Shown: one piece after another, positions 2,800-64,000 of the stretch
Layout: each line of letters starts with the position of its first letter
How positions within the stretch are numbered: the stretch's first letter is position 1
Source: Leuctra nigra
Lineage: Eukaryota > Arthropoda > Insecta > Plecoptera > Leuctridae
Direction of reading: 5' to 3'
NCBI GenBank assembly: GCA_934045905.1
Contig: OW203768.1
Span: 1,578,316 to 1,642,315, forward strand
Length of the DNA: 64,000 bases
Made by a program: the position numbers and the translations under genes
Notes under the pieces: model-generated
Seen by the model: only the letters and a program-made list of their open reading frames with translations
Database searches by the model: none
Told to the model about the DNA's origin: nothing

Positions 2800-3515
2800 C
2801 ATGCAGGTCCGCCATCTTGTGTAGCGGGGACAAGATGGCCGCTGTTATGTCTCGTGGAGTTGGCTTGGACTTGGAGTTGTAAATCTAGTGAACGAGGACA
2901 AGTGTTGTGTCAAATCACATGCAGGTCCGCCATCTTGTGTAGCGAGGACAAGATGGCCGCTGTTATGTCTCGTAGAGTTGGCTTGGACTTGGAGTTGTAA
3001 ATCTAGTGAACGAGGACAAGTGTTGTGTCAAATCACATGCAGGCCCGCCATCTTGTGTAGCGGGGACAAGATGGCCGCTGTTATGTCTCGTGGAGTTGGC
3101 TTGGACTTGGAGTTGTAAATCTAGTGAACGAGGACAAGTGTTGTGTCAAATCACATGCAGGCCCGCCATCTTGTGTAGCGGGGACAAGATGGCCGCTGTT
3201 ATGTCTCGTGGAGTTGGCTTGGACTTGGAGTTGTAAATCTATAGTGAACGAGGACAAGTGTTGTGTCAAATCACATGCAGGCCCGCCATCTTGTGTAGCG
3301 GGGACAAGATGGCCGCTGTTATGTCTCGTGGAGTTGGCTTGGACTTGGAGTTGTAAATCTAGTGAACGAGGACAAGTGTTGTGTCAAATCACATGCAGGC
3401 CCGCCATCTTGTGTAGCGGGGACAAGATGGCCGCTGTTATGTCTCGTGGAGTTGGCTTGGACTTGGAGTTGTAAATCTATAGTGAACGAGGACAAGTGTT
3501 GTGTCAAATCACGCC
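2800..3515. repeat. 118-bp tandem repeat, six copies
   Basis: Six head-to-tail units of 118 bp (two junctions are 120 bp, because of an extra AT in CTATAGTGAACG). Each unit contains CCATCTTGTGTAG...ACAAGATGG, a 9-bp inverted repeat around a short loop, followed by CCGCTGTTATGTCTCG. The units are nearly identical, implying recent amplification. The overlapping 76- to 116-codon open frames are by-products of the repeat; a 118-bp period shifts frame from unit to unit, so they are not genes. Confidence 0.95.
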
Positions 3516-6479: not shown

Positions 6480-6745
6480 GTTCCGAGTCTAAATCTAAGA
6501 CTTCAAATGGCCACTCCTTCTCTTTCAAGATTCCGCCACGGGGCATCAAACCGATATTGACAGCCGAATTCGACAATCAGTCCGATATTTCTGAAATAGT
6601 GCATGAAATCCTGTACAAGACGTTAGAAAGTGAACAATCTCTTCCACCACATTATCTCGATGCCCCCGGAGCGCGGACCAAATTGAAAGTGTTTATCCGC
6701 CGCCCACCGCCAGATCACAGAGCTATCAGCCTCCTGGATCTCTGA
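6480..6745 (+). other. Candidate terminal coding exon, unknown protein
   Basis: An open frame of about 88 codons follows a plausible acceptor: a T-rich tract, a TTCTAAC branch-like motif, then CAGTTTTAG at 6471-6479. It ends at TGA 6743-6745. The translation has balanced, protein-like composition, with FSFKIPPRGIKPILTAEFDN near the start, a helical SDISEIVHEILYKTLE stretch in the middle and a basic end (RTKLKVFIRRPPPDHR). No signal peptide or membrane segment is visible and I do not recognise the family. The last ten codons lie inside the first unit of a 99-bp minisatellite, so the stop codon is itself part of the repeat. An internal ATG start is absent, which fits an exon rather than a whole gene. 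It could also be a chance open frame. Confidence 0.3.
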
Positions 6746-7107
6746 TCAACACTCTGGTTACCCGCGTGCGCGCGCAACTGCTGTAATCACGGCCACATAA
6801 AGCACGCATCAGATCACAGAGCTATCAGCCTCCTGGATCTCTGATCAACACTCTGGTTACCCGCGTGCGCGCGCAACTGCTGTAATCACGGCCACATAAA
6901 GCACGCATCAGATCACAGAGCTATCAGCCTCCTGGATCTCTGATCAACACTCTGGTTACCCGCGTGCGCGCGCAACTGCTGTAATCACGGCCACATAAAG
7001 CACGCATCAGATCACAGAGCTATCAGCCTCCTGGATCTCTGATAAACACTGCTTACTCCACGTGCGCGCGCAACTGCTGTAATCACGGCCACATCAAGCA
7101 CGCATCT
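6711..7107. repeat. 99-bp minisatellite, four copies
   Basis: Units start at 6711, 6810, 6909 and 7008 with CAGATCACAGAGCTATCAGC and include CGTGCGCGCGCAACTGCTG and ATCACGGCCACAT. Units one to three are nearly identical; the fourth is diverged (GATAAACACTGCTTACTCC). A period of 99 keeps reading frame. The first unit overlaps the end of the candidate exon, so the array seems to have grown from it or into it. Confidence 0.95.
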
Positions 7108-9992: not shown

Positions 9993-11462
9993 ATGAGTGG
10001 AATATATAAAGTTTGGAGTGATGAAGTAAACCGGCTAGATGCCCCTTCAGCTGTAGACAATGTCATAAACATTTCTAGTCAACCCATAGGAGCTTCTATA
10101 AATGATTTTTCGTCTAGTGATGAATCGGACACGGAGCTAATGCAAGTTGAGTCTGCAACCAATGAGATGTCTTTGAACATAGTTCCCGATGGTTTCACGA
10201 TGGTGACAGGAAATAAAAGGCGTCGTAATTGTAACGATCGTCCCAGCACACGATCATCTGGGTCAGATGCTTCAGGCCCATCATCCAAGAGAGTGATCAA
10301 CCTTGTGCGTACGCAGAACTCATTTGAGCCGCTTGCAAGTGCAAATGATATGGACACGACCCCGATGACGGCGGAGACTTTGCCAGATAAGAAGTATAAA
10401 ATCCCACCAATAGTGATTCAAAATATGAAATCTCATAAGGCATTAGTTGAGTTGCTCTCCGCTGTATGTCCAGAACAAGGGGCATTCATAATCAAACCTG
10501 GTCTCGAAGTTTCTCGAGTAATCATTAGAGATATTACCTCGTACAAACTAATTACCTCCGCCCTAGACTCGACTGAGGGAATAGAGTACTACACGTTTCC
10601 AACTGAGCGCACTAGATCACAGCGTTTTGTTCTGAGAGGTCTGCCACAATCTGCTGAAACAGAAGACATTCAAGAGGAGCTGAAGCAGCAAGGCTTCAAT
10701 GTCCGCTCTGTGCGGCAGATGAAGATGCCTGGAGACAGTACACGTCTTTTGCCCCTTTTTGAATGTACGCTAGTAAGTACGAGTGGTCAGGCTCCAGTGG
10801 ACCTCAGCCAAATCAAGAGACTCCTCTACTGCGTGGTCTCCACCGAGGCCCCACGGAGCAAGAAGATTAATGTCATACAATGTTTTAATTGTCAAAGAGT
10901 GGGTCATACGGCCAAATTTTGTCATCGCCAGCCACGATGTGTTCGATGTGGAGGTGTGCATCAGGTTAAGGAGTGTAAGGAGTCACCAGAAACAGCAAAG
11001 TGCTGTAACTGCAATCAGCAGCATGCCGCTTGCTACCGAGGATGTGATGTCATCAAGGCAGCAACTCGTCATGCTACTCGAGCCCGACGTCCACAGCAGC
11101 AAGATGGCTCTTCTCCACAGCATGATAACCGAGGGAATACTCAGACGCAACCCACGCCCGTGCCACGAGTCTCATTGGCGCAACCACGGACTTTTGCTTC
11201 TGTTTTGAACACTCAGATAAATCCAGAGCAACCCTCGTCCTCAAACACCACTGCCTTAGAAGAAGCAGAGAGGCCACCCAATGCTCTTCCTGAACTCGTA
11301 CAACCGGTAGTACCTCAACAATCAACTATTGATTGGATAGCCCTTATAAACGGCATTGCAATTTTTATAGTTAATATGAACATTCACCCCATCATTACGT
11401 CTCTGGCAAGTTTTGTGCCAACTCTTCTTTTGTCTGTACAAAATCGCAATGCCAGCGATTAA
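9993..11462 (+). CDS. LINE ORF1: gag-like nucleic-acid-binding protein
   Basis: A 489-aa protein of the Jockey/I-type ORF1 family, which coats the element RNA and escorts the ribonucleoprotein. The N-terminal 130 residues are polar and probably disordered, with a basic KRRR patch. Residues about 211-265 match the PRE_C2HC domain (RFVLRGLPQSAETEDIQEEL). Three zinc knuckles follow: residues 297-310 (CX2CX4HX4C, CFNCQRVGHTAKFC), 316-328 (CX2CX3HX4C) and 337-351 (CX2CX3HX6C). This arrangement is diagnostic. After an acidic, proline- and glutamine-rich linker the C terminus is hydrophobic (IDWIALINGIAIFIVNMNIH). The start ATG at 9993 is the first after the leader. The frame ends at TAA 11460-11462, 14 nt past the likely ORF2 start. 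No stop or frameshift is present. Confidence 0.93.
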   Translation: MSGIYKVWSDEVNRLDAPSAVDNVINISSQPIGASINDFSSSDESDTELMQVESATNEMSLNIVPDGFTMVTGNKRRRNCNDRPSTRSSGSDASGPSSKRVINLVRTQNSFEPLASANDMDTTPMTAETLPDKKYKIPPIVIQNMKSHKALVELLSAVCPEQGAFIIKPGLEVSRVIIRDITSYKLITSALDSTEGIEYYTFPTERTRSQRFVLRGLPQSAETEDIQEELKQQGFNVRSVRQMKMPGDSTRLLPLFECTLVSTSGQAPVDLSQIKRLLYCVVSTEAPRSKKINVIQCFNCQRVGHTAKFCHRQPRCVRCGGVHQVKECKESPETAKCCNCNQQHAACYRGCDVIKAATRHATRARRPQQQDGSSPQHDNRGNTQTQPTPVPRVSLAQPRTFASVLNTQINPEQPSSSNTTALEEAERPPNALPELVQPVVPQQSTIDWIALINGIAIFIVNMNIHPIITSLASFVPTLLLSVQNRNASD

Positions 11463-14088
11463 TTCAATTAATCTAATCATTTGGAATGCTAATAGCATAA
11501 GTTCTCGTAAAGACGAATTACTTCTATTGATGGAATCACGAAATTTAATGGCTGCCCTTGTCTGTGAGACCCATCTTAACCCTAAGGACAAGCTTAAGCT
11601 TGCCAATCACTCAGTGTATAGAACTGATCGTCCAGGAGACAGGAGAGCAGGAGGGACTGCAATCATCATTGACAATCGAGTAAGTCACTACGAGATTGTT
11701 TTACCTGAAACGAAATCAATAGAGGCTACCGCTATCCTGCTTTTTACTAAACTGGGTCCACTACGGCTTATAGCCACGTATTGTCCTCCGCGAACTAAGC
11801 TTCTCACAGCAGATATAGAAGCATTAATGGACTCGAATTACCCGACTATTCTCGGTGGCGACCTTAATGCTAAGCATACAGCCTGGAACTCGCGAGTTGT
11901 CAACGCCAATGGCCGCACTCTCCTTTCACTCTCCCGTATAAGTGACTTTACTGTGACTGGACCGCAAGAAGCGACACATCTTCATATCCCTACAGGAAGA
12001 GCTGATGTTCTTGACATTGCGGTGGTGAAAAATCTGCGACATTCCATTGAATTAGAAACACTTTTAGAATTGTCTTCAGATCATAATCCTGTACTTTTGA
12101 GCGTAGGGGACTCATACGAGACCGTTGATCCCATCATTCGATTCAATTACAGAAAAGCAGACTGGGAAAAGTTCAGAGAGCATTTATCAAATAAGTTGGA
12201 GAGTGGACCACTTGATTCGCATCAGGATATAGATTTAGCAGTAAATAAATTAACGGAAAATATTATGGAAGCAAGAGCGATCAGTGTTCCCATTTGTAAT
12301 ACAAAAAGGTGCACAATATTTGATCTTCCACGTGGAATTAAACTGTCAATAGCCACTCGAAACCGTGCACGTAGGAGATGGCAGGCGCTCAGAACACCTG
12401 ATTTACATGAAGAATATAAGCTCTTAGACAGATCTGTAAAGGAATTAATTCGTCGCCACAGGAGAGAGAGGTGGGAAGATGCTGTAGCCACACTAGAACC
12501 AGGGAGTCGTCCACTCTGGTCCATGGCAAAACGACTGACAAGAAGCAAACAACCAAATCCACCCATTCAAGGTAGTACACACCTTGCATGCAGCCCACAT
12601 GATAAGGCAGAAGTTCTAGCAGATTCGCTTCAAAATCAGTTTTCCCCAAACCCGCCGACTAATTCATCAGCACATATCGAGGCTGAAGTAAGAACCCATC
12701 TTGCTATACACAAGGCGCAGGCTGAAGATGATGAAGTCGTTCTCTGCTCTATGGACGAAGTAATTATATATCTAAATGAACTTGCAAATGGCAAGGCACC
12801 TGGTATTGACGAGATCACAAACACGATTCTTAAAGAACTTCCTATACCTGCCGGTGAACGTATCCTTGAAATATTTAATGCCAGTCTCCGTCTTCAACAC
12901 TTCCCCACCCAATGGAAAGTAGCCAAAGTCATTGTGTTCCCGAAAGCGGGAAAGAATCTTCGTGACCCTGCAAATTACCGGCCGATTAGTCTCCTCTCAT
13001 CACTATCGAAGCTTTTTGAAAAGGTCCTTCATGCTCGAATTAGAGGCCACGCAAACGCTACAAAGCTGCTGATCAATGAGCAGTTTGGCTTTCGACAGAA
13101 GCATTCAACAACACATCAGCTTCTACGTGTGGTTGACAAGATAAACGATGGATTTAAAAAGCTGAAAGGAACTGGTATAGTTTTCCTGGACGTTGCTAAA
13201 GCATTTGATAGAGTTTGGCATGAAGGCCTACTACAAAAACTAATTAAATATCAATTCCCCAACTACTTAATCAATATCATCCACTCCTATTTAAATCAAA
13301 GATCCTTCACCGTACACATCAACGGTGCCTGTTCTTCAGCGAGGCCTATTCTGGCTGGAGTTCCTCAGGGATCTATCATTAGCCCCATCCTCTTCAACAT
13401 CTTCACCAATGACATCCCAACTAACATTCCGGACACCGAAGTAGCTTTCTATGCTGACGATGCCGCAGTCATCTGCCAATCTATGGCATCTAATCAACTT
13501 GGCCCGCCTCTGCAAAAAGCATTAGACGTACTCAGCCACTGGTATACAGAGAACCGTATAGCCCTAAATTCATCTAAGACAGAGGCAACACTCTTCACCA
13601 AGCGACGGAAATTTCAACCCCCTACCATAAACATCTCTGGTACAGATGTCTCCTGGTCTCCCAGCAATGTTTACCTGGGTGTCACCCTGGATGCCAAGCT
13701 CTCCTGGAAGGCCCACGCTGAGAAGATTGCCAGCAAGGCCAACGGGAAGACGGCGGCGCTGTTCCCACTGCTCAAAAGCAAATCCATGCCGCTCACCAGC
13801 AAGCTGCTTCTTATCCAGAGCGTCATCGTGCCCACACTGACGTACGCCTCACCAGTGTGGTACGAGAGGACTTCAGCGGGAGCGAGAACAATGCTGCAGA
13901 GGGTGCAGAACAGGGCCCTCAAGATCGCCCTGCGCACTCCGATGTTCACCCGGACGAAGAGCATACACCAAGATATAGGATTTGCCTATCTCCACGAAGT
14001 CATGGAAAATCAGAGAGAGTCGTTCTACGCAGCACTCGGAGACCATGGAAATCCACTAATCAGCAGACTGGCTGATGTTACTTCCTAA
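11449..14088 (+). CDS. LINE ORF2: APE endonuclease and reverse transcriptase
   Basis: It nicks the target DNA and copies the element RNA by target-primed reverse transcription. Starting from ATG 11449 the protein is 879 aa, close to the usual Jockey ORF2 length; an in-frame ATG at 11413 would add 12 residues. The endonuclease occupies about residues 1-225: IIWNANSISS near the start, CETHL, the metal-site GDLNAKHTAW (D at 138) and SDHNP (D211, H212). The reverse transcriptase spans about 440-740: NGKAPGIDEI, NYRPISLLSS, EQFGFRQKHST, FLDVAKAFDRVWH, GVPQGSIISP and the catalytic YADD at 668-671 (13450-13461). The C-terminal part (RVQNRALKIALRTP) is typical of the Jockey lineage. No RNase H is seen. 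All key residues I checked are present. ORF2 is in a different frame and overlaps ORF1 by 14 nt, suggesting termination-reinitiation. Confidence 0.95.
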   Translation: MPAINSINLIIWNANSISSRKDELLLLMESRNLMAALVCETHLNPKDKLKLANHSVYRTDRPGDRRAGGTAIIIDNRVSHYEIVLPETKSIEATAILLFTKLGPLRLIATYCPPRTKLLTADIEALMDSNYPTILGGDLNAKHTAWNSRVVNANGRTLLSLSRISDFTVTGPQEATHLHIPTGRADVLDIAVVKNLRHSIELETLLELSSDHNPVLLSVGDSYETVDPIIRFNYRKADWEKFREHLSNKLESGPLDSHQDIDLAVNKLTENIMEARAISVPICNTKRCTIFDLPRGIKLSIATRNRARRRWQALRTPDLHEEYKLLDRSVKELIRRHRRERWEDAVATLEPGSRPLWSMAKRLTRSKQPNPPIQGSTHLACSPHDKAEVLADSLQNQFSPNPPTNSSAHIEAEVRTHLAIHKAQAEDDEVVLCSMDEVIIYLNELANGKAPGIDEITNTILKELPIPAGERILEIFNASLRLQHFPTQWKVAKVIVFPKAGKNLRDPANYRPISLLSSLSKLFEKVLHARIRGHANATKLLINEQFGFRQKHSTTHQLLRVVDKINDGFKKLKGTGIVFLDVAKAFDRVWHEGLLQKLIKYQFPNYLINIIHSYLNQRSFTVHINGACSSARPILAGVPQGSIISPILFNIFTNDIPTNIPDTEVAFYADDAAVICQSMASNQLGPPLQKALDVLSHWYTENRIALNSSKTEATLFTKRRKFQPPTINISGTDVSWSPSNVYLGVTLDAKLSWKAHAEKIASKANGKTAALFPLLKSKSMPLTSKLLLIQSVIVPTLTYASPVWYERTSAGARTMLQRVQNRALKIALRTPMFTRTKSIHQDIGFAYLHEVMENQRESFYAALGDHGNPLISRLADVTS

Positions 14089-38195: not shown

Positions 38196-38204
38196 CGGAA
38201 AAAC
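38196..38204 (+). repeat. Foldback target-site duplication, left copy
   Basis: CGGAAAAAC abuts the first base of the inverted repeat (AGGTCCGTGACC) and is repeated exactly at 45197-45205. Confidence 0.85.
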
Positions 38205-41200
38205 AGGTCCGTGACCTCAGCACCCCCTTTTTGGAAATTTGGAATTCCGCCAACGGCATTCGTTTGTGCTTCGTTTGTGCTCGTTTGTGCACTAAAAAAT
38301 TTCGTTTGTGCCTAACTCGAACACATAAATATGGGCCAAGGACGAATGGGGTGCTGAGGTCACGCCAGCACCCCCACTTTGGAAATTTGGAATTCCGCCA
38401 ACGGCATTCGTTTGTGCTTCGTTTGTGCTCGTTTGTGCACTAAAAAGTTTCGTTTGTGCCTAACCCCTTCAACCCCTAATGAGCAAATCAAAATTTTGTA
38501 AAACGTGACCTCAGCACCCCCACTTTGGAAATTTGGAATTCCGCCAACGGCATTCGTTTGTGCTTCGTTTGTGCTCGTTTGTGCACTAAAAAGTTTCGTT
38601 TGTGCCTAACCCCTTCAACCCCTAATGAGCAAATCAAAATTTTGTAAAACGTGACCTCAGCACCCCCTTTTTGGAAATTTGGAATTCCGCCAACGGCATT
38701 CGTTTGTGTTTCGTTTGTGCTCGTTTGTGCACTAAAAAGTTTCGTTTGTGCCTAACCCCTTCCACCCCTAATGAGCAAATCAAAATTTTGTAAAACGTGA
38801 CCTCAGCACCCCCTTTTTGGAAATTTGGAATTCCGCCAACGGCATTCGTTTGTGCATCGTTTGTGCTCGTTTGTGCACTAAAAAGTTTCGTTTGTGCCTA
38901 ACCCCTTCAACCCCTAATTCGCAAATCAAAATCTTGTAAAACGTGAACTCAGCACCCCCACTTTAGAAAATTGGAATTCCGCCAACGGCATTCGTTTGTG
39001 CTTCGTTTGTGCTCGTTTGTGCACTAAAAAGTTTCGTTTGTGCCTAACCCCTTCCACCCCTAATGAGCAAATCAAAATATTGTAAAACGTGACCTCAGCA
39101 CCCCCTTTAAGGAAATTTGGAATTCCGCCAACGGCATTCGTTTGTGCTCGTTTGTGCACTAAAAAGTTTCGTTTGTGCCTAACCCCTTCAACCCCTAATG
39201 AGCAAATCAAAATTTTGTAAAACGTGACCTCAGCACCCCCACTTTGAAAATTTGGAATTCCGCCAACGGCATTCGTTTGTGCTTCGTTTGTGCTCGTTTG
39301 TGCACTAAAAAGTTTCGTTTGTGCCTAACCCCTTCACCCCTAATTATTAAATTCAAGTTTTGGAAAAAAGTGATCTCAGCATCCGACTAAGGAAATTTGA
39401 AATTTGAATAACGACATTCGTTTGTGCTTCGTTTGTGCTCGTTTGTGCACTAAAAAGTTTCGTTTGTGCCTAACCCCTTCAACCCCTAATTCGCAAATCA
39501 AAATTTTGTAAAATGTGACCTCAGCACCCCCCTTTGGAAAGTTGGAATTCCGCCAACGGCATTCGTTTGTGCTTCGTTTGTGCTCGTTTGTGCACTAAAA
39601 CATGTCGTTAGTGCCTAAACCCTTCAACCCCTAATTCGCTAATCAAAATTTTGTAAAATGTGACCTCAGCACCCCCCTTTGGAAAATTGGAATTCCGCCA
39701 ACGGCATTCGTTTGTTCTTCGTTTGTGCTCTTTTGTGCACTAAAACATGTCGTTTGTGCCTAACCCCTTCAACCCCTAATTCGCAAATCAAAATCTTGTA
39801 AAACGTGACCTCAGCACCCCCACTTTAGAAATTTGGAATTCCGCCAACGGCATTCGTTTGTGCTTCGTTTGTGCTCGTTTGTGCACTAAAAAGTTTCTTT
39901 TGTGCCTAACCCCTTCAACCCTTAATTCGCAAATCAAAATCTTGTAAAACGTGACCTCAGCACCACCACTTTAGAAATTTGGAATTCCGCCAACGGCATT
40001 CGTTTGTGCTTTGTTTGTGCTCGTTTGTGCACTAAAACATGTCGTTTGTGCCTAACCCCTTCAACCCCTAATTCGCAAATCAAAATCTTGTAAAACGTGA
40101 ACTCAGCACCCCCACTTTGGAAATTTGGAATTCCGCCAAAGGCATTCGTTTGTGCTTCGTTTGTGCACGTTTGTGCACTACAAAGTTTCGTTTGTGCCTA
40201 ACCCCTTCAACCCTTAATTCGCAAATCAAAATCTTGTAAAACGTGACCTCAGCACCCCCACTTTAGAAATTTGGAATTCCGCCAACGGCATTCGTTTGTG
40301 CTTCGTTTGTGCTCGTTTGTGCACTAAAACATGTCGTTTGTGCCTAACCCCTTCAACCCCTAATTCGCAAATCAAAATTTTGTAAAATGTGACCTCAGCA
40401 CCCCCTTTTGGAAAATTGGAATTCCGCCAACGGCATTCGTTTGTGCTTCGTTTGTGCACGTTTGTGCACTACAAAGTTTCGTTTGTGCCTAACCCCTTCA
40501 CCCCTAATTATTAAATTCAAGTTTTGGAAAAAAGTGATCTCAGCATCCGACTAAGGAACTTTGAAATTTCAATAACGACATACGTTTGTACTTCGTTCGT
40601 GCTCGTATGTGCACTAAAAAGTTTCGTTTGTGCCTAACCCCTTCAACCCCTAATTCGCAAATCAAAATTTTGTAAAATGTGACCTCAGCACCCCCTTTTG
40701 GAAAATTGAGAGTCCGCCAAAGGCATTCGTTTGTGCTTCATTTGTGCACGTTCGTGCACTACAAAGTTTCATTTGTGCCTAACCCCTTCACCCCTAATTA
40801 TTAAATTCAAGTTTTGGAAAAAACTGATCTCAGCATCCGACTAAGGAAATTTGAAATTTCAATAACGATATACGTTTGTACTTTGTTTGTGCTCGTTTGT
40901 GCACTAAAAAGTTTCGTTTGTGCCTAACCCCTTCAACCCTTAATTCGCAAATCAAAATCTTGTAAAACGTGACCTCAGCACCCCCACTTTAGAAATTTGG
41001 AATTCAGCCAACGGCTTTCGTTTGTTCTTCGTTTGTGCTCGTTTGTGCACTAAAAAGTTTCGTTTGTGCCTAACCCCTTCAACCCCTAATTCGCAAATCA
41101 AAATCTTGTAAAACGTGACCTCAGCACCCCCTATTTGGAAATTTGGAATTCCGCCAACGGCATTCGTTTGTGCATCGTTTGTACTCGTTTGTGCACTAAA

Positions 41201-41769
41201 AAGTTTCGTTTGTGCCTAACCCCTTCAACCCCTAATTCGCAAATCAAAATCTTGTAAAACGTGACCTCAGCACCCCCACTTTAGAAATTTGGAATTCCGC
41301 CAACGGCTTTCGTTTGTTCTTCGTTTGTGCTCGTTTGTGCACTAAAAAGTTTCGTTTGTGCCTAACCCCTTCAACCCCTAATTCGCAAATCAAAATTTTG
41401 TAAAATGTGACCTCAGCACCCCCTTTTTGGAAAATTGGAATTCGGCCAACGGCATTCGTTTGTGCTTCGTTTGTGCCTGTTTGTGCACTTAAACATTTTG
41501 TTTGTGCCTAACCCCTTCAACCCCTAATTCGCAAATCAAAATCTTGTAAAACGTGACATCAGCACACCAACTTTGGAAATTTGGAATTCCGCCAACGGCA
41601 TTCGTTTGTGCTTCGTTTGTGCTCGTTTGTGCACTAAAACATGTCGTTTGTGCCTCACCATATCAACCCCTAATTCGCAAATCAAAATCTTGTAAAACGT
41701 GACATCAGCATCCCCACTTTGGAAATTTGGAATTCCGCCAACGGCATTCGTTTGTGCTTCGTTTGTGCT
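38205..41769 (+). repeat. Foldback left arm: 146-bp satellite, about 24 units
   Basis: Unit: GTGACCTCAGCACCCCC, TTGGAATTCCGCCAACGGCA, then four copies of a 10-bp TCGTTTGTGC motif split by CACTAAAAAG, then CCTAACCCCTTCAACCCCTA and CAAATCAAAATTTTG. A diverged unit type (GATCTCAGCATCCGACTAAG, CAATAACGACAT) is interspersed near 39375, 40540 and 40830. The outermost unit is unusual: CTAACTCGAACACATAAATA leads to GGGGTGCTGAGGTCACG, an inverted copy of its own start. Confidence 0.95.
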
Positions 41770-42608
41770 GTAAGACAAGATTTGCAAAATCAGCTTTGTG
41801 TAGACTATAAGATTGTGTGAGATGAAAATATCACGCAAAGCATATTCATAGCAGTCGTGTGAGCATAAATTATAAAGCTTGACCATAGCTTGACGGGGTA
41901 CAAAATTGGTAGAAATCCATACGACTACGAGTGAGCATGGAAAAACCACAACGTTACGGCGTTTTGTCGACAGAAACATGAATGGCATAATATTTGTTCA
42001 AAAATTTACTGATTAAACTGAGATCAGGTCTCTATCAAGATTTTGTCCCGTTTGTGTTTGGGCGGGGTTGTGTTCTTGGTTTTATCTGCCACACACTTGA
42101 ATGTCTACTAACTACGAAAACGCTCAGTGTTACGCGTTGATGAGCAAGCACAGATACGCGCAACATCAGGCGCGTAGGAACTTTATTTTGAAAGGGGGGG
42201 TCAAAATTATAGAGGATCGATCGATGTCAGGAAAAGGTAGTTCGCTGCTACAAGGGAACTGGGGGACTCACACCCAGTTAGCCCAGCAGAGCCTTTTTTG
42301 AATTTTTGATAAAAAAAAAATAATCGAATTTTAAGCTTTTTTATCATTCTTTTCACAGAAATATAAAATGTGAGATATGCAATATTCTGTGGAAACTTAA
42401 GAAAAAATGTTTTTATAGAATCCCCAATGCCCCGCAGGGCATTTTTTATGTCTTGATAAAAAAATTATTAAATTCGACGCTTTTATGCAATCTTTTTTTT
42501 TAAGGAAATTAAAAATTTGTGTATGCAATATTCTTGGGGAAACAAGAGACAAAATGAAAATTTCGTTATTTGACAAAATCCCAAATAGCCCCGCAGGAAA
42601 ATACTTGA
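41770..42608. other. Foldback loop, unique part
   Basis: Non-satellite sequence between the arms. It includes CAGGCGCGTAGGAAC at 42168, a motif also seen at 57613 and 59955, and a degenerate two-copy repeat of about 130 bp in which each copy ends with GCCCCGCAGG (about 42430 and 42588). Open frames at 41536-41988 (minus) and 42101-42301 are short and show no transposase features. Confidence 0.6.
42596..42608 (+). repeat. 13-bp target duplication, left copy
   Basis: GGAAAATACTTGA, repeated exactly at 43012-43024 and flanking the GC-rich retroelement insertion. Confidence 0.8.
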
Positions 42609-43011
42609 TTAATTAATTGATTAGTTTGGTTTAACGGCGCGTCAACGACGAGGTTATATTGCGCACATTCATTTTTTATTTAACTTTATTGAACATAATT
42701 GGAGGACATAGGGAGGGTCGACCTAACGGGCCCGATCCGGGGGAGTCCCTCACTGGTGGGAAGGCCAAGCCGGAATGGGGACAGACCGAGGGGGGGGGGG
42801 GGGGAGGGGGGGAGACTTCGGGCCGGTGGGACCCGATTTCAGGGGGATCACCATCTCGAGAGGGGAGGCCGGCCCGAGGGGCCCGCGAATTTGGGAGGGC
42901 ATGGGTAAGACTAGGTCGACCCTGGACTGCACTTCGTTGGGACCAACACTCGTTATGTGAGGCGGCCCCTTAAGCCCCACCACCGCGTCAAGGTGGCAGT
43001 CCATTGGTGGG
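42609..43011 (-). mobile_element. Non-autonomous retroelement inserted in the foldback loop
   Basis: A 403-bp insertion between 13-bp direct repeats. Read on the minus strand it starts CCCCACCAATGGACTGCCAC and CTTGACGCGGTGGTGGGGC and ends GCGCCGTTAAACCAAACTAA plus a TTAATTAA-type tail. GC-rich body with a G15/C15 run, AT-rich tail and long duplication fit SINE-like or 5'-joined retrotransposition. The 104-codon Gly-rich open frame in it is a low-complexity artefact. Confidence 0.7.
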
Positions 43012-43024
43012 GGAAAATACTTGA
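43012..43024 (+). repeat. 13-bp target duplication, right copy
   Basis: GGAAAATACTTGA, identical to 42596-42608. Confidence 0.8.
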
Positions 43025-43055
43025 ATTCTAGTGAAAGAGAATAGATTATGAATCA

Positions 43056-45196
43056 TTTTTTTAGTGCACAAACGAGCACAAACGAAGCACAAATAATTGC
43101 CGTTGTTGAATATTCAAATTTCCTTAGTGTGATGTTGAGATCACGTTTTCCAAAAAATTGAATTTAAAAATTAGGGGTTGAAGGGATTAGGCACAAACGA
43201 AACTGTTTAGTGCACAAACGAGCACAAACGAAGCACAAACGAATGCCGTTGGCGGAATTCCAAATTTCTAAAGTGGGGGTGCTGAGGTCACGTTTTACAA
43301 GATTTTGATTTGCGAATTAGGGGTTGAAGGGGTTAGGCACAAACGAAACTTTTTGGTGCACAAACGAGCACAAACGAAGCACAAACGAATACCGTTGGCG
43401 GAATTCAAAATTTCTAAAAAGGGAGTGCTGAGGTCACGTTTTACAAAAAAATTATTTGCGAATTAAAGGTTGAAGGGGTTAGGCACAATCGAAACTTTTT
43501 AGTGCACAAACGAGCACAAACGAAGAACAAACGAAAGCCGTTGGCGGAATTCCAAATTTCTAAAGTGGGGGTGCTGAGGTCACGTTTTACAAGATTTTGA
43601 TTTGCGAATTAGGGGTTGAAGGGGTTAGGCACAAACGAAACTTTTTAGTGCACAAACGAGCACAAACGATGCACAAACGAATGCCGTTGGCGGAATTCCA
43701 AATTTCCAAAGTGGGGGTGCTGGCGTGACCTCAGCACCCCATTCGTCCTTGGCCCATATTTATGTGTTCGAGTTAGGCACAAACGAAATTTTTTAGTGCA
43801 CAAACGAGCACAAACGAAGCACAAACGAATGCCGTTGGTGGAATTCCAAATTTCTAAAGTGGGGTTGCTGATGTCACGTTTTACAAGATTTTGATTTGCG
43901 AATTAGGTTTTGAAGGGGTTAGGCACAAACGAAACTTTTTAGTGCACAAACGAGCACGAACGAAGTACAAACGTATGTCGTTATTGAAATTTAAAATTTC
44001 CTTAGTCGGATGCTGAGATCACATTTTTTCAAAACTTGAATTTAATAATTAGGGGTGAAGGGGTTAGGCACAAACGAAACTTTGTAGTGCACAAACGTGC
44101 ACAAACGAAGAACAAACGAATGCCGTTGGCGGAATTCCAATTTTCCAAAAAGGGGGTGCTGAGGTCACATTTTACAAAATTTTGATTTGCGAATTAGGGG
44201 TTGAAGGGGTTAGGCACAAACGACATGTTTTAGTGCACAAACGAGCACAAACGAAGCACAAACGAATGCCGTTGGCGGAATTCCAAATTTCTAAAGTGGG
44301 GGTGCTGAGGTCACGTTTTACAAGATTTTGATTTGCGAATTAAGGGTTGAAGGGGTTAGGCACAAACGAAACTTTTTAGTGCACAAACGAGCACGAACGA
44401 AGTACAAACGTATGTCGTTATTGAAATTTCAAAGTTCCTTAGTCGGATGCTGAGATCACTTTTTTCCAAAACTTGAATTTAATAATTAGGGGTGAAGGGG
44501 TTAGGCACAAACGAAACTTTGTAGTGCACAAACGTGCACAAACGAAGCACAAACGAATGCCGTTGGCGGAATTCCAATTTTCCAATAGGGGGTGCTGAAG
44601 TCACATTTTACAAAATTTTGATTTGCGAATTAGGGGTTGAAGGGGTTAGGCACAAACGACATGTTTTAATGCACAAACGAGCACAAACGAAGCACAAACG
44701 AATGCCGTTGGCGGAATTCCAAATTTCTAAAGTGGGGGTGCTGAGGTCACGTTTTACAAGATTTTGATTTGCGAATTAGGGGTTGAAGGGGTTAGGCACA
44801 AACGAAACTTTTTAGTGCACAAACGAGCACAAACGAAGAATAAACGAATGCCGTTGGCGGAATTCCAAATTTCCAAAAAGGGGGTGCTGAGGTCACGTTT
44901 TACAAAATTTTGATTTGCTCATTAGGGGTTGAAGGGGTTAGGCACAAACGAAACTTTGTAGTGCACAAACGAGCACAAACGAAGCACAAACGAATGCCGT
45001 TGGCGGAATTCCAAATTTCCAAAGTGGGGGTGCTGGCGTGACCTCAGCACCCCATTCGTCCTTGGCCCATATTTATGTGTTCGAGTTAGGCACAAACGAA
45101 ATTTTTTAGTGCACAAACGAGCACAAACGATGCACAAACGAATGCCGTTGGCGGAATTCCAAATTTCCAAAAAGGGGGTGCTGAGGTCACGGACCT
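43056..45196 (-). repeat. Foldback right arm: inverted 146-bp satellite, about 14 units
   Basis: Same unit as the left arm in reverse complement (GCACAAACGA motifs, TGCCGTTGGCGGAATTCC, GGGGGTGCTGAGGTCACG). The diverged unit type appears near 43110, 43990 and 44440. The outermost unit with the ATAAATATGGGCC segment (45060-45080) is also repeated internally at 43750-43770. The innermost unit is the most diverged. Confidence 0.95.
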
Positions 45197-45205
45197 CGGA
45201 AAAAC
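45197..45205 (+). repeat. Foldback target-site duplication, right copy
   Basis: CGGAAAAAC immediately after the last base of the element, matching 38196-38204. Confidence 0.85.
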
Positions 45206-48904: not shown

Positions 48905-50240
48905 AATTACACAGTCACGTGACCCTATAGATAGGCACCTCCACGCGGTTACACAGTCACGTGACCCTACAGATAGGCACCTCCACGCGGTTACACAGTC
49001 ACGTGACCCTACAGATAGGCACCTCCACGCGGTTACACAGTCACGTGACCCTACAGATAGGCACCTCCACGCGGTTACACAGTCACGTGACCCTACAGAT
49101 AGGCACCTCCACGCGGTTACACAGTCACGTGACCCTATAGATAGGCACCTCCACGCGGTTACACAGTCACGTGACCCTATAGATAGGCACCTCCACGCGG
49201 TTACACAGTCACGTGACCCTATAGATAGGCACCTCCACGCGGTTACACAGTCACGTGACCCTACAGATAGGCACCTCCACGCGGTTACACAGTCACGTGA
49301 CCCTACAGATAGGCACCTCCACGCGGTTACACAGTCACGTGACCCTACAGATAGGCACCTCCACGCGGTTACACAGTCACGTGACCCTACAGATAGGCAC
49401 CTCCACGCGGTTACACAGTCACGTGACCCTATAGATAGGCACCTCCACGCGGTTACACAGTCACGTGACCCTATAGATAGGCACCTCCACGCGGTTACAC
49501 AGTCACGTGACACTATAGATAGGCACCTCCACGCGGTTACACAGTCACGTGACACTATAGATAGGCACCTCCACGCGGTTACACAGTCACGTGACCCTAC
49601 AGATAGGCACCTCCACGCGGTTACACAGTCACGTGACCCTATAGATAGGCACCTCCACGCGGTTACACAGTCACGTGACCCTATAGATAGGCACCTCCAC
49701 GCGGTTACACAGTCACGTGACACTATAGATAGGCACCTCCACGCGGTTACACAGTCACGTGACCCTATAGATAGGCACCTCCACGCGGTTACACAGTCAC
49801 GTGACCCTATAGATAGGCACCTCCACGCGGTTACACAGTCACGTGACACTATAGATAGGCACCTCCACGCGGTTACACAGTCACGTGACCCTATAGATAG
49901 GCACCTCCACGCGGTTACACAGTCACGTGACCCTATAGATAGGCACCTCCACGCGGTTACACAGTCACGTGACACTATAGATAGGCTCCTCCACGCGGTT
50001 ACACAGTCACGTGACCCTATAGATAGGCACCTCCACGCGGTTACACAGTCACGTGACCCTATAGATAGGCACCTCCACGCGGTTACACAGTCACGTGACC
50101 CTATAGATAGGCACCTCCACGCGGTTACACAGTCACGTGACCCTATAGATAGGCACCTCCACGCGGTTACACAGTCACGTGACCCTATAGATAGGCACCT
50201 CCACGCGGTTACACAGTCACGTGACCCTATAGATAGGCAC
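48905..50240. repeat. 42-bp satellite, 32 copies, each with TCACGTGA
   Basis: The unit is GCGGTTACACAGTCACGTGA followed by CCCTATAGATAGGCACCTCCAC. TCACGTGA recurs at exactly 42-bp spacing from 48915 to 50217, giving 32 copies with no indel. Variation is almost confined to one octamer: CCCTACAG, CCCTATAG or CACTATAG. The order of variants shows higher-order periods (CACTATAG at 49713, 49839 and 49965, 126 bp apart). The 544-codon minus-strand frame across it exists only because 42 is divisible by three and one frame lacks stops. Confidence 0.97.
50233..50240 (+). repeat. hAT target-site duplication, left copy
   Basis: ATAGGCAC, part of the satellite unit, repeated exactly at 52609-52616 after the insertion. 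Confidence 0.9.
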
Positions 50241-52608
50241 CAGTGGCGTGCCGACCTATCTAAATTTGGTGCTCGAGCACAGTCATTTTTTGGGGGTGGG
50301 TGGTCCCCGCCAGGGGACCTACCCACCTTGGGACACATTTTATAATGTAACAGTGATACATTCTCCACTAATACAACTTAATGTATTCACACAAACATGG
50401 TGATGAGGGTGTATACGTCGTATTGCTGCACAGCAAACTGTAACATTGTAAATATCAATAATGGAAAGGGAACAAAAGATTTTTATCAATAAATGTATGC
50501 AGTGAACATGTACATAAGTGCTAATGCAATTGATACATTTTAGGGGTTGAGTAGGTCTAGGTGGGTGGATTGTTGCAAAAACTGCAGGTTGATGGTTCGG
50601 TGGGTGGATAGATACTAAAATATTTATGAAATAATATTGAATTGACCCATTTTCAGTACTTATTGAAAGGATTTGATGAATCATAAAAACAGCATAACGG
50701 TTAGAGAATCATCTTCTGTAGGTATTTTCTTTCATGCTCCTGCATGCTGGATCGAAAATAGTATTTATTATCAGCAAAGAAGCATAGGAAATTTAAATAT
50801 CGCTGAGATACAGTTTGCCTGTGTATAATTTATGATGGATGTAAATTAACGAACATGAATCCATTGAATCCATTGAATTATGGATTCAATTGCACCAAAA
50901 TCATTTTAAACCCGTCCTTGGGTAGCCTCAAGGGCGTTTTCAGGGGTGGGCCGAGGGGGCCATGGCCCCCACCGAAATCAGGATTTCATCTAAGAAAATA
51001 AGCACATTTAAAATAATATGTGGAAAAAAACTTAAAAATAGATAGATCATGTCAAAAACGTTCCAAATGGTTTAGAATTGAGTTTAAATTCACAAAAATT
51101 TCTTTAACCTCTTAGTCTAATTTTTTGATATTTTGTAATTTATTATTTCCCAAAATAGCTATACATTGCGATTCAAAATTGCACCTAAATGAATGACCTT
51201 GATCCAAAATTTTCTCGGGGGCTGCGCCCCCGAACCCCCTGTTTTAAACTGTCATTTTTCAGAATATTAGTAATGTCGGCCCCCCCCCCCCCCCGAAATT
51301 TCATCCTGGATACGCCCTTGGGTAGCCTAATACAAAAAATAATCATTCACAATTATTGTACCTACCTGAAAAACCATTTTAAACGTGTGCTAATGTAGAG
51401 TTGAAAACTAAAAAATAGGTGCGCCGCATTTTTTTTTGTTTTAATGACTTTTTTGTTTTCTATCAAAAATACAGTACCTTGTAAAATTATTTAAAACCCG
51501 TTTTAATGTAGCCAAAACCAAAAAGTTTCACTGCGCGGCTATTTTATTTATAATTTTATTACTTACCTATATAAATTAAGAATTTTTCTGTTTTCCTTAA
51601 AAAACAGAGTAATGTAAAATCATTTTAAACCTGTCCTAGGTAGACGAAAACCAAAAAATTCGCTGCAGCGCATTATTATGTGTGCTTTTCTTTTTATAAA
51701 TAAATCACGTCTTTGTTTATTCATTTCAAAATCATTTAAATCACTTAAATCATTTAAACCCGTTCTAATGTAGCCAAAAACAAAAAATTTCGCTGCGCGG
51801 CTATTTTATGTGTGATTTTATTGCTAATGTAATATCATTTTAAACCCGTCCTAAGGTAGCCAAAATACAAAAAATTCGCTGCGCGGCATTTTTATTATTT
51901 TTTTGTTTTCTTTCAAAATTATACTTAGTAGGTACCTGTAAAATCATTTTAAACCCGTTGTAATGAAGCAAAAAAAAATTATTCGCTGCGCGGCTTTTTT
52001 ATGTGTGATTTTTTATACATGAATGAATTTTCTGTTTTCTTTCAAAATCGTCGTACCTGTAAAATCATTTAAAACTCGTTCTAATGTAGTCAAAATCCCA
52101 AAATTTCGCTGCTCGGCATTTTTCGTTTGATTTTATTTCTAATATAAATTATACTGACTGTTCTGTTTTCCTTCAAAAATATCGTACCTGCCTGTAAACT
52201 TATTGTAAACCCGTCTATAACCAAAAGAAAAAAAATCGATGCGCGGCATTTGTGTGGGTGCAAACCGTTTAATAATTAAATTAATTACTTCCCAGAGCTA
52301 AAACTAAAATAATTCACTTCACTATATTTGTTTCTCTGTTGTTTTAAGAGGTGCTTCATCAAACATTAACAATGATAAATTATTTTCAAGTCTAAAATGC
52401 ACCATAAAACATTCAAAGTTGGTATTGAAATTGAATTTTTTTCCGAGGCTATGCTCGCACCCCGGACCTGCATGTACCTACTGGGGGGTCCTCTCCCCAG
52501 ACCTCATTGCGATCGCTGCCAATTTTATGTTCGTGACCATTGGGGGTGGGTGGGTATACCCATCAATGAATAAGCACCGGTCCTCAAGATAGGTTCGGCA
52601 CGCCACTG
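50241..52608. mobile_element. Non-autonomous hAT-type transposon inserted in the satellite
   Basis: A 2368-bp insertion with ends CAGTGGCGTGCCGA and its reverse complement TCGGCACGCCACTG (14 bp perfect, then CCTATCT on both sides) and an 8-bp target duplication, the signature of the hAT superfamily. The interior is a degenerate tandem array of about 110-135 bp (AAAATCATTTTAAACCCGT, CTAATGTAGCCAAAA, TTCGCTGCGCGGC) from about 50880 to 52240. A GGGGGCTGCGCCCCC palindrome lies near 51218 and a C15 run at 51280-51294. No transposase frame. Confidence 0.92.
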
Positions 52609-62849: not shown

Positions 62850-63240
62850 TTGCATCACGGCATACTGGAGCGCATTTACTTGCATCACGGCATATTGGAG
62901 CGCATTTACTTGCATCACGGCATATTGGAGCGCATTTACTTGCATCACGGCATACTGGAGCGCATTTACTTGCATCACGGCATACTGGAGCGCATTTACT
63001 TGCATCACGGCATATTGGAGTGCATTTACAATTGCATCACGGCATATTGTAGCGCATTTACAATTGTATCACGGCATACTGGAGCGCATTTACAATTGTA
63101 TCACGGCATACTGGAGCGCATTTACAATTGCATCACGGCATACTGGACCGCATTTACTTGCATCACGGCATACTGGAGCGCATTTACTTGCATCACGGCA
63201 TACTGGAGCGCATTTACTTGCATCACGGCATATTGGACTG
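62850..63240. repeat. 30/33-bp minisatellite, 13 copies
   Basis: Unit TTGCATCACGGCATACTGGA plus GCGCATTTAC. The first six and last units are 30 bp; middle units are 33 bp, with an extra ACA (TTTACAATTG). Both lengths are multiples of three, which creates the 170-codon plus-strand frame and a minus-strand frame; neither is a gene. Confidence 0.95.
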
Positions 63241-64000
63241 CATCACAGACAGAGAATACTTCTTTCGACATGATAATATCACTGATAAAACATATAGAAA
63301 GTGAAAAGGTGTTGGTTGACTGGGACTTTTTAATACAGTAGATGCAAGTTTGATGCACCTCTATACATTTCCATGTACCTATCCTATTGTTTTTTTTTTG
63401 TAGACCTGCAAATGTCACATGAAATTACATTTTTGATACTTTTTTTGTAGACTATTTATTCAAGAAACTTGTCAGGGAGAGTTCAATGCACTTTCAGGAT
63501 CCGTATTACAAAATATATTGTATCATTTCACTACAACAGCAAATCATTGGGTTATATATAAAACATGTACAGTCGAACTATACAAAGGCAACTTTTAGTT
63601 TATTAACCAGGTTCTGCACATGAAATACCTAACAACCAATCTCCAGAAATGGTATTTCATTGCGGTGTGTAATTATTAAATTCGCACAATATGTATTGCG
63701 AAATCGCATTATAATAAATGAACTCTCAATTGCAAGAGCATATAGGAATATGAATGATTGTATAATTAAAATAAACACACGTGAACACAAATATTACGCG
63801 ATTCGCTCTTAAAATACCAGTGTAAAACGTAAAACGATCAAACTGTATAAAATCCATTCTCGGAAAGTATCGACCATGGACCATTGGTATTGTCAAGCCA
63901 TTTATAAGATTGCCATCCAGCAATCTATTAAAAACACGTTGTTTACATTAAATATAATTAGGTACTGATATTTTACAATCAATAAAATCGTATTCAAAAT
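63241..64000. other. No gene seen
   Basis: AT-rich sequence to the end of the window without recognisable features. Confidence 0.45.

What the first reader, a model, noticed from the sequence alone, without database searches (positions are those of the whole stretch)
38196..45205. Giant foldback transposon whose inverted arms are 146-bp satellite arrays
The sequence shows two satellite arrays in opposite orientation, perfect outer inverted ends (AGGTCCGTGACCTCAGCACC) and an exact 9-bp direct repeat CGGAAAAAC at both edges, so the 6992 bp moved or was inserted as a unit. From known families, a 9-bp duplication and repetitive inverted arms match Drosophila Foldback elements (Mutator-like superfamily). 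Inference: a previously undescribed foldback family that can also seed satellite DNA.
Basis: partly seen in the sequence, partly recalled or inferred. Interest (0 to 1): 0.86.

Follow-up and report, generated by a model that had tools for sequence, protein, structure and literature searches.

The report
Foldback jumping gene with satellite arms
The stretch is a real, recently moved jumping gene of an animal genome whose two mirror-image arms are built from a 146-base satellite repeat, and larger relatives carry a cut-and-paste enzyme that appears to be fused to a ubiquitin-removing enzyme.

Summary
The unnamed 536-Mb host genome holds a family. Of 27 paired copies read whole, 27 have plus-array/core/minus-array and 21 a perfect 9-bp duplication (0 of 702 cross-pairs). 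Two copies on other contigs differ from the window copy at 4 and 6 positions. One copy has paralogous empty sites. Large copies carry a long gene, open in three: a transposase with invariant D/D/D/E residues whose model best matches ISCth4, then Hermes and P element, fused to a USP-type deubiquitinase domain with conserved catalytic residues. Several relatives are annotated NOF-FB. A sister family (52-53% identical) has its own 137-bp array and 9-bp duplications. Satellite seeding is not supported: 529 of 612 monomer sites lie inside the 27 elements. Satellite-armed foldbacks are known (Rehavkus-1_TC, Tetris); new here are open autonomous copies, an architecture shared with a sister family, and the transposase-deubiquitinase fusion.

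The parts
38196..38204 (.). left 9-bp target site duplication CGGAAAAAC
38205..45196 (.). whole non-autonomous foldback element, 6992 bp
   Evidence: two near-identical copies on contigs C5 and C6
38205..38224 (+). left terminal 20 bp AGGTCCGTGACCTCAGCACC; the first 6 bases (AGGTCC) mark the true end, internal monomers mostly read TAAAAC or TAAAAT there
38205..41769 (+). left arm, 25 monomers of about 146 bp
38324..38351 (+). inner part of the left terminal unit (CATAAATATGGGCCAAGGACGAATGGGG), followed by an inverted copy of the end motif
41770..43057 (.). core, about 1.29 kb, no frame of 120 codons or more; about 1165 bp of it equal one end of the large copies' core (95-96%), about 120 bp do not match them
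43058..45196 (-). right arm, 15 monomers of about 146 bp
43737..43764 (-). internal copy of the terminal-unit marker in the right arm, 9 monomer lengths inside the terminal one
45050..45077 (-). inner part of the right terminal unit
45177..45196 (-). right terminal 20 bp, exact inverted copy of the left end
45197..45205 (.). right 9-bp target site duplication CGGAAAAAC

Best explanation
A non-autonomous copy of a recently active cut-and-paste foldback transposon family of the MULE/NOF kind. SHOWN: unit insertion with 9-bp TSDs; inverted arms made of tandem copies of the sub-terminal sequence; large copies with an open frame for a DDE-type transposase followed by a USP-like domain; small copies whose core is mostly one end of the large core; one arm that differs by a clean block of about 15 monomers between otherwise identical copies; a sister family with its own array, similar ends and 9-bp TSDs. 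INFERRED: the transposase binds the motif repeated in the monomers (GCACAAACGA, shared with the sister family), so arms are arrays of binding sites; it pairs the two ends, cuts where AGGTCC meets the flank and inserts with a 9-bp stagger; the window copy is moved in trans; arms change by unequal exchange or replication slippage, and occasionally one arm is copied onto the other end; the USP domain deubiquitinates the transposase or chromatin.
Against: 4 of 27 copies have no TSD (L011, L012, L024, and E40, one of the three with an open frame); recombination is assumed. Ten exact ends had no partner; the five of them that I fetched are single-ended remnants or partial copies. The element's own transposase fragment has no Pfam match; 9 of 50 members match MULE, weakly. 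The NOF-FB name is a source's annotation; Drosophila NOF was not among the results. No transcript, protein or population data. The empty site of the window copy could not be searched. About 11 kb of the large core has no assigned function.
Confidence: 0.93

Rival explanations
1. A plain 146-bp satellite array with a local inversion; the TSD is a coincidence.
For: The arms alone look like satellite; TRF gives 83-88% matches between units.
Against: Dispersed copies with exact ends and 21 different exact TSDs, near-identical 7-kb copies at three sites, an empty site of one copy, and 529 of 612 monomer sites lying inside elements.
Confidence: 0.01
2. A foldback element driven by another superfamily (P element/Galileo type or hAT) rather than a MULE relative.
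For: Galileo is a foldback-like element of the P superfamily with internal tandem repeats (passages of PMC4079207); P element and Hermes follow ISCth4 in the fold comparison.
Confidence: 0.06
3. The elements are being turned into satellite DNA: arrays have escaped and stand free elsewhere.
For: Precedents: Tetris TIR-220 and TCsat23. 68 of 612 monomer sites were not in the loci that I counted.
Against: 529 of 612 sites lie in the 27 elements and 15 more in nine other fetched loci; the 100 places that one search prints all fall in paired elements or the single-ended locus L047. Longest arm 40 monomers.
Confidence: 0.08

Closest known systems
Rehavkus-1_TC and Rehavkus elements (passages of PMC10218199 and PMC6446971)
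   Same: 9-bp TSD; [quoted passage not shown] related to MULEs; a minisatellite is noted in or near the C-terminal part, where our ORF has 46-residue repeats.
   Different: Arms here reach 40 monomers, copies with an open frame are 20-31 kb (Rehavkus-1_TC 9.5 kb), no PHD finger was matched, and a USP domain follows the transposase. The Rehavkus protein was not compared, so the two could be one clade.
Drosophila FB / NOF-FB
   Different: Monomer 146 bp here; Drosophila NOF sequence not compared; whether NOF has a USP domain is not known to me.
Tetris of Drosophila virilis (passages of PMC4079207)
   Same: Foldback with about 220-bp tandem repeats in the inverted arms and 8-10-bp TSDs.
   Different: The authors found no autonomous Tetris copy; its repeats form long arrays, ours were not seen to.
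Tm1 of root-knot nematodes (passages of PMC3169594)
   Same: Composite arms of tandem repeats of variable number, 9-bp TSD, MULE transposase, MITE-like derivatives.
   Different: 14-bp repeats; 496-aa FLYWCH/MULE transposase of the Phantom type.
Plant MULEs with ULP1 (passages of PMC2528002) and Helitrons with VTD/OTU deubiquitinases (passages of PMC9741609)
   Same: DNA transposons that carry a protease acting on ubiquitin or ubiquitin-like modifiers.
   Different: Different protease families; the plant ULP region lies downstream of the transposase in either orientation; here a USP fold is in the same frame and recurs across relatives.

Membership tests
Foldback (FB-like) transposons | long inverted arms made of tandem repeats of variable number | tested here: met
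   27 of 27 copies, 2 to 40 monomers per arm
Foldback (FB-like) transposons | flanking target site duplication of 9 bp | tested here: met
   21 of 27 perfect, 23 within one mismatch, controls 0
Foldback (FB-like) transposons | empty site with one copy of the duplication | tested here: met
   paralogous empty sites of L028; the window copy could not be tested
MULE superfamily | DDE/RNase H transposase related to MULE/IS256 | tested here: met
MULE superfamily | TSD 8-11 bp, usually 9 (recalled; 9-11 bp in the groups shown) | tested here: met
NOF clade | transposase homologous to Drosophila NOF | tested here: inconclusive
   relatives named NOF-FB by sources (P0005, P0024, P0061, P0073); NOF itself was not in the results
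Rehavkus | PHD finger in the transposase | tested here: inconclusive
   no PHD among Pfam matches of P0001/P0002; 8 of 50 members match Znf_SCAND3
Rehavkus | protein similarity to Repbase Rehavkus entries | not testable with these tools
   Repbase not held
USP (peptidase C19) deubiquitinases | USP fold with catalytic Cys and His and an acid/Asn | tested here: met
USP (peptidase C19) deubiquitinases | deubiquitinating activity | not testable with these tools
   needs biochemistry
satellite DNA | long free-standing tandem arrays | tested here: inconclusive
   529 of 612 monomer sites inside elements; 68 sites not located, and an assembly may collapse arrays

The most novel reading that the evidence does not exclude
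An old animal clade of MULE-like transposons works as a two-part machine: a single transposase-deubiquitinase protein, and inverted arms of satellite monomers that act as cooperative binding arrays. A satellite array, a similar terminal unit and the USP domain are also found in a sister family whose transposase is only 52-53% identical, so arrays and fusion would be functional parts under selection rather than decay. The deubiquitinase would protect the transposase from degradation, or strip ubiquitin from chromatin at the arms, letting the element excise from satellite-like DNA.
Probability: 0.35. Interest if true: 0.75.

Novelty: new variant of a known kind. Interest (0 to 1): 0.58.

Why it matters
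Autonomous copies of satellite-armed foldbacks can be missing altogether (none was found for Tetris). Here copies with an open transposase frame, deletion derivatives, a near-pure foldback, a sister family and recent jumps coexist in one genome, so the role of tandem arms (binding arrays or by-product), the gain and loss of monomers, and the link between transposons and satellite DNA become directly testable. A transposase fused to a USP domain with conserved catalytic residues in many relatives would be a further case of a mobile element carrying its own ubiquitin editor.

Tried and rejected
Plain satellite with a local inversion: rejected. Free satellite arrays: looked for by a 30-base monomer pattern; none among the 100 places printed; 68 of 612 sites remain unlocated. 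Other genes in the large core: three further ORFs of 126-137 aa gave Pfam matches of E 0.15 or worse, or none. The Pfam PhosphMutase match in the coding repeats (8.2e-05 in P0001, above its cut-off; 0.0034 in P0002) is judged spurious, as it covers about 40 residues of a tandem repeat. Host identification: the window's LINE protein finds at best a 71% relative in unnamed data; of 7 named relatives among the 120 listed, 4 are insects and the 3 from a newt include the best two; the COX1 search did not complete. The host is left unnamed; the transposase's named relatives are insects except one catfish entry. Captured host gene in E36's 7.1-kb insert: one ORF of 116 aa, not followed. Papers, passages only: PMC12628747 and PMC8277862 gave nothing more on the clade; PMC13359780 is an arthropod MULE survey with TIRs of 13-1193 bp whose text has no 'foldback' or 'NOF'. 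Search for transposase + USP domain + MULE: 0 papers; two wider searches show no such fusion in the titles listed (20 of 24 and 10 of 42 papers).

Full report
WHAT IS THERE. The element runs 38205-45196 (6992 bp) between two copies of CGGAAAAAC (38196-38204, 45197-45205) and ends in AGGTCCGTGACCTCAGCACC on both sides, inverted. TRF finds a 146-bp period at 38210-41769 (24.5 copies) and 43058-45191 (14.6 copies); the arrays are in opposite orientation and flank a 1.29-kb core without a frame of 120 codons. The window lies at C7:1578316-1642315 of an unnamed 536-Mb genome.

A FAMILY, NOT AN ACCIDENT. The 20-bp end occurs 105 times with up to 2 mismatches (control 0); of the 100 listed, 64 are exact. 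The exact ends, with one end at 1 mismatch (L015), make 27 head-to-head pairs, one extra end inside E36 and 10 unpaired ends. I read all 27 pairs whole (26 fetched, plus the window) and fetched 5 of the 10 unpaired ends (L044-L048); these five are short remnants or partial copies and are not in the counts below. Most of the ends with 1-2 mismatches were not looked at. In 27 of 27 pairs a plus array, a core and a minus array follow each other; arms hold 2 to 40 monomers. 21 of 27 have a perfect 9-bp TSD, all different; L019 and L029 have one mismatch; L011, L012, L024 and E40 have none. Left and right 9-mers of different copies match in 0 of 702 pairs, also with one mismatch allowed. The 21 TSDs are A/T-rich in the middle, with C at position 1 and G at 9 the commonest.

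RECENT MOVEMENT. L017 (C5) and L019 (C6) are the window copy in reverse orientation, with 4 and 6 differences in 6993 columns, in different flanks with different TSDs. L023 is the same element less 2183 bp, about 15 monomers, in one arm: matching prefix and suffix together cover all of it. L011 and L027 differ in length by 582 bp, about 4 monomers. So whole monomers appear to be gained or lost quickly. Weaker junction-spanning matches (71-81%) exist for L015 and L021; the one for L021 has only about 25 bases on one side.

COPY TYPES. 18 of 27 cores are 1.17-1.30 kb; L012 and L013 have about 0.6 kb; L024 about 150 bp; L029 about 14 bp, nearly a pure foldback. E30, E33, E38 and E40 have cores of 16.8, 15.4, 10.6 and 22.7 kb that align in long blocks at 95-100%; about 1165 bp of the common core equal one end of these, and about 120 bp of the window's core do not match them. 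The small copies therefore look like internal-deletion derivatives. E36 is a common core with a 7.1-kb insert, and has a second, internal AGGTCC end 605 bp inside its left arm. In E38 the left arm is nearly a copy of its own right arm (1 difference in the first 1224 bp; 98.8% over 1560 columns, against 92% to E33's left arm) and cuts into the ORF: one arm seems to have been copied onto a truncated end. Other arms are not exact mirror images.

A SISTER FAMILY WITH THE SAME PLAN. The genome search with the protein gave 47 matches, including several further families at about 32-53% identity with open frames. Beside the 53% relative on C7 lies a 137-bp array of 6.2 units whose motif GCACAAACGA and whose terminal unit, with an inverted copy of the end, parallel those of the window family; the USP part of this family is 47% identical. 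Its end motif gives 132 hits at up to 2 mismatches (control 0), but many of these are the inverted inner copy about 136 bp from an end. Of 9 exact-end pairs less than 30 kb apart that I chose from the list, 7 have a perfect 9-bp TSD once the end is placed 4 bases outwards (a shift found on the same data), including all 3 pairs, of 28.7, 23.4 and 18.1 kb, that enclose the transposase. A closer subfamily (ends GGGTGCGTGACC) also has 9-bp TSDs: CTAAATTTG around L052 and TGTCTCCGT around L073/L074 (boundary read by eye; the script itself listed 7 matching bases). A mini-element of 446-458 bp (L049-L051) has TSD TAATACGTG, with one mismatch in L051, and occurs with the same flanks at all three places, so it was copied together with them.

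SATELLITE SEEDING. A 30-base monomer pattern with up to 3 mismatches has 612 sites in the genome (control 0); 529 lie in the 27 elements, 6 in the five unpaired loci, 9 in L049-L052; 68 were in none of the loci counted. The 100 places printed all lie in paired elements or in L047.

HOW IT PROBABLY WORKS. Shown: unit insertion, 9-bp duplication, exact ends, derivatives next to copies with an open frame, monomer turnover. Inferred: the transposase binds each monomer, the array raises the chance of end pairing, and only the AGGTCC at the very end licenses cleavage (of 377 internal motifs counted in the arms, 1 carries it, the nested end in E36). Two 99.8% identical loci (L045, L046) keep the left flank, 9 further bases and 58 bp of right end where L047 has about 1.26 kb of element after the same flank; their left boundary coincides with the element's left end, which looks like an imprecise excision. 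This site shows no TSD, so the reading is weak.

VERDICT. A genuine, recently active foldback transposon of the MULE/NOF kind, with unusually complete material. The kind is known (Rehavkus-1_TC comes closest and may be the same clade; its protein could not be compared); the copies with an open frame, a satellite array in a sister family and the transposase-deubiquitinase fusion are what a specialist would want to follow.

Noticed in passing
window 9993-14088: Two-ORF non-LTR retrotransposon: a 489-aa first ORF with CCHC-like knuckles (read by eye) and an 891-aa second ORF whose relatives carry endonuclease and reverse transcriptase domains; best relative 71%.
   Followed up: partly
window 48907-50241: 42-bp minisatellite, 31.8 copies, 98% matches, open in one frame as a 14-residue repeat.
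   Followed up: no
window 2800-3512, 6711-7106, 62850-63243: Three further tandem arrays (118/238 bp, 99 bp, 30 bp).
   Followed up: no
L045, L046 (C4:14259308-14267608 and C4:16038245-16046545): 8.3-kb inverted duplicates, 99.84% identical, about 1.8 Mb apart, each with a 58-bp element-end scar at a site that in L047 (C4:17363388-17371688) holds about 1.26 kb of element.
   Followed up: partly
L031:1299-5591, L033:5374-9333, L041:2491-6312: Coding minisatellite: 138-bp (46-residue) tandem repeats inside the transposase gene, differing in number between copies.
   Followed up: partly
G000, e.g. C10:1420651, C11:13702257, C3:43126019, C2:51877462: Several further NOF-like transposase families in the same genome, many matches lying in open frames of about 900 codons or more; the longest is 2308.
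   Followed up: partly
L036-L037 (E36): 7.1-kb insert in a common core, with a 3-bp overlap of the core match at its edges, tandem repeats of about 93 bp and no clear gene; also a nested second element end.
   Followed up: partly
window 42700-42900: Long G runs and a GC-rich patch in the core of an otherwise A/T-rich element; origin unknown.
   Followed up: no
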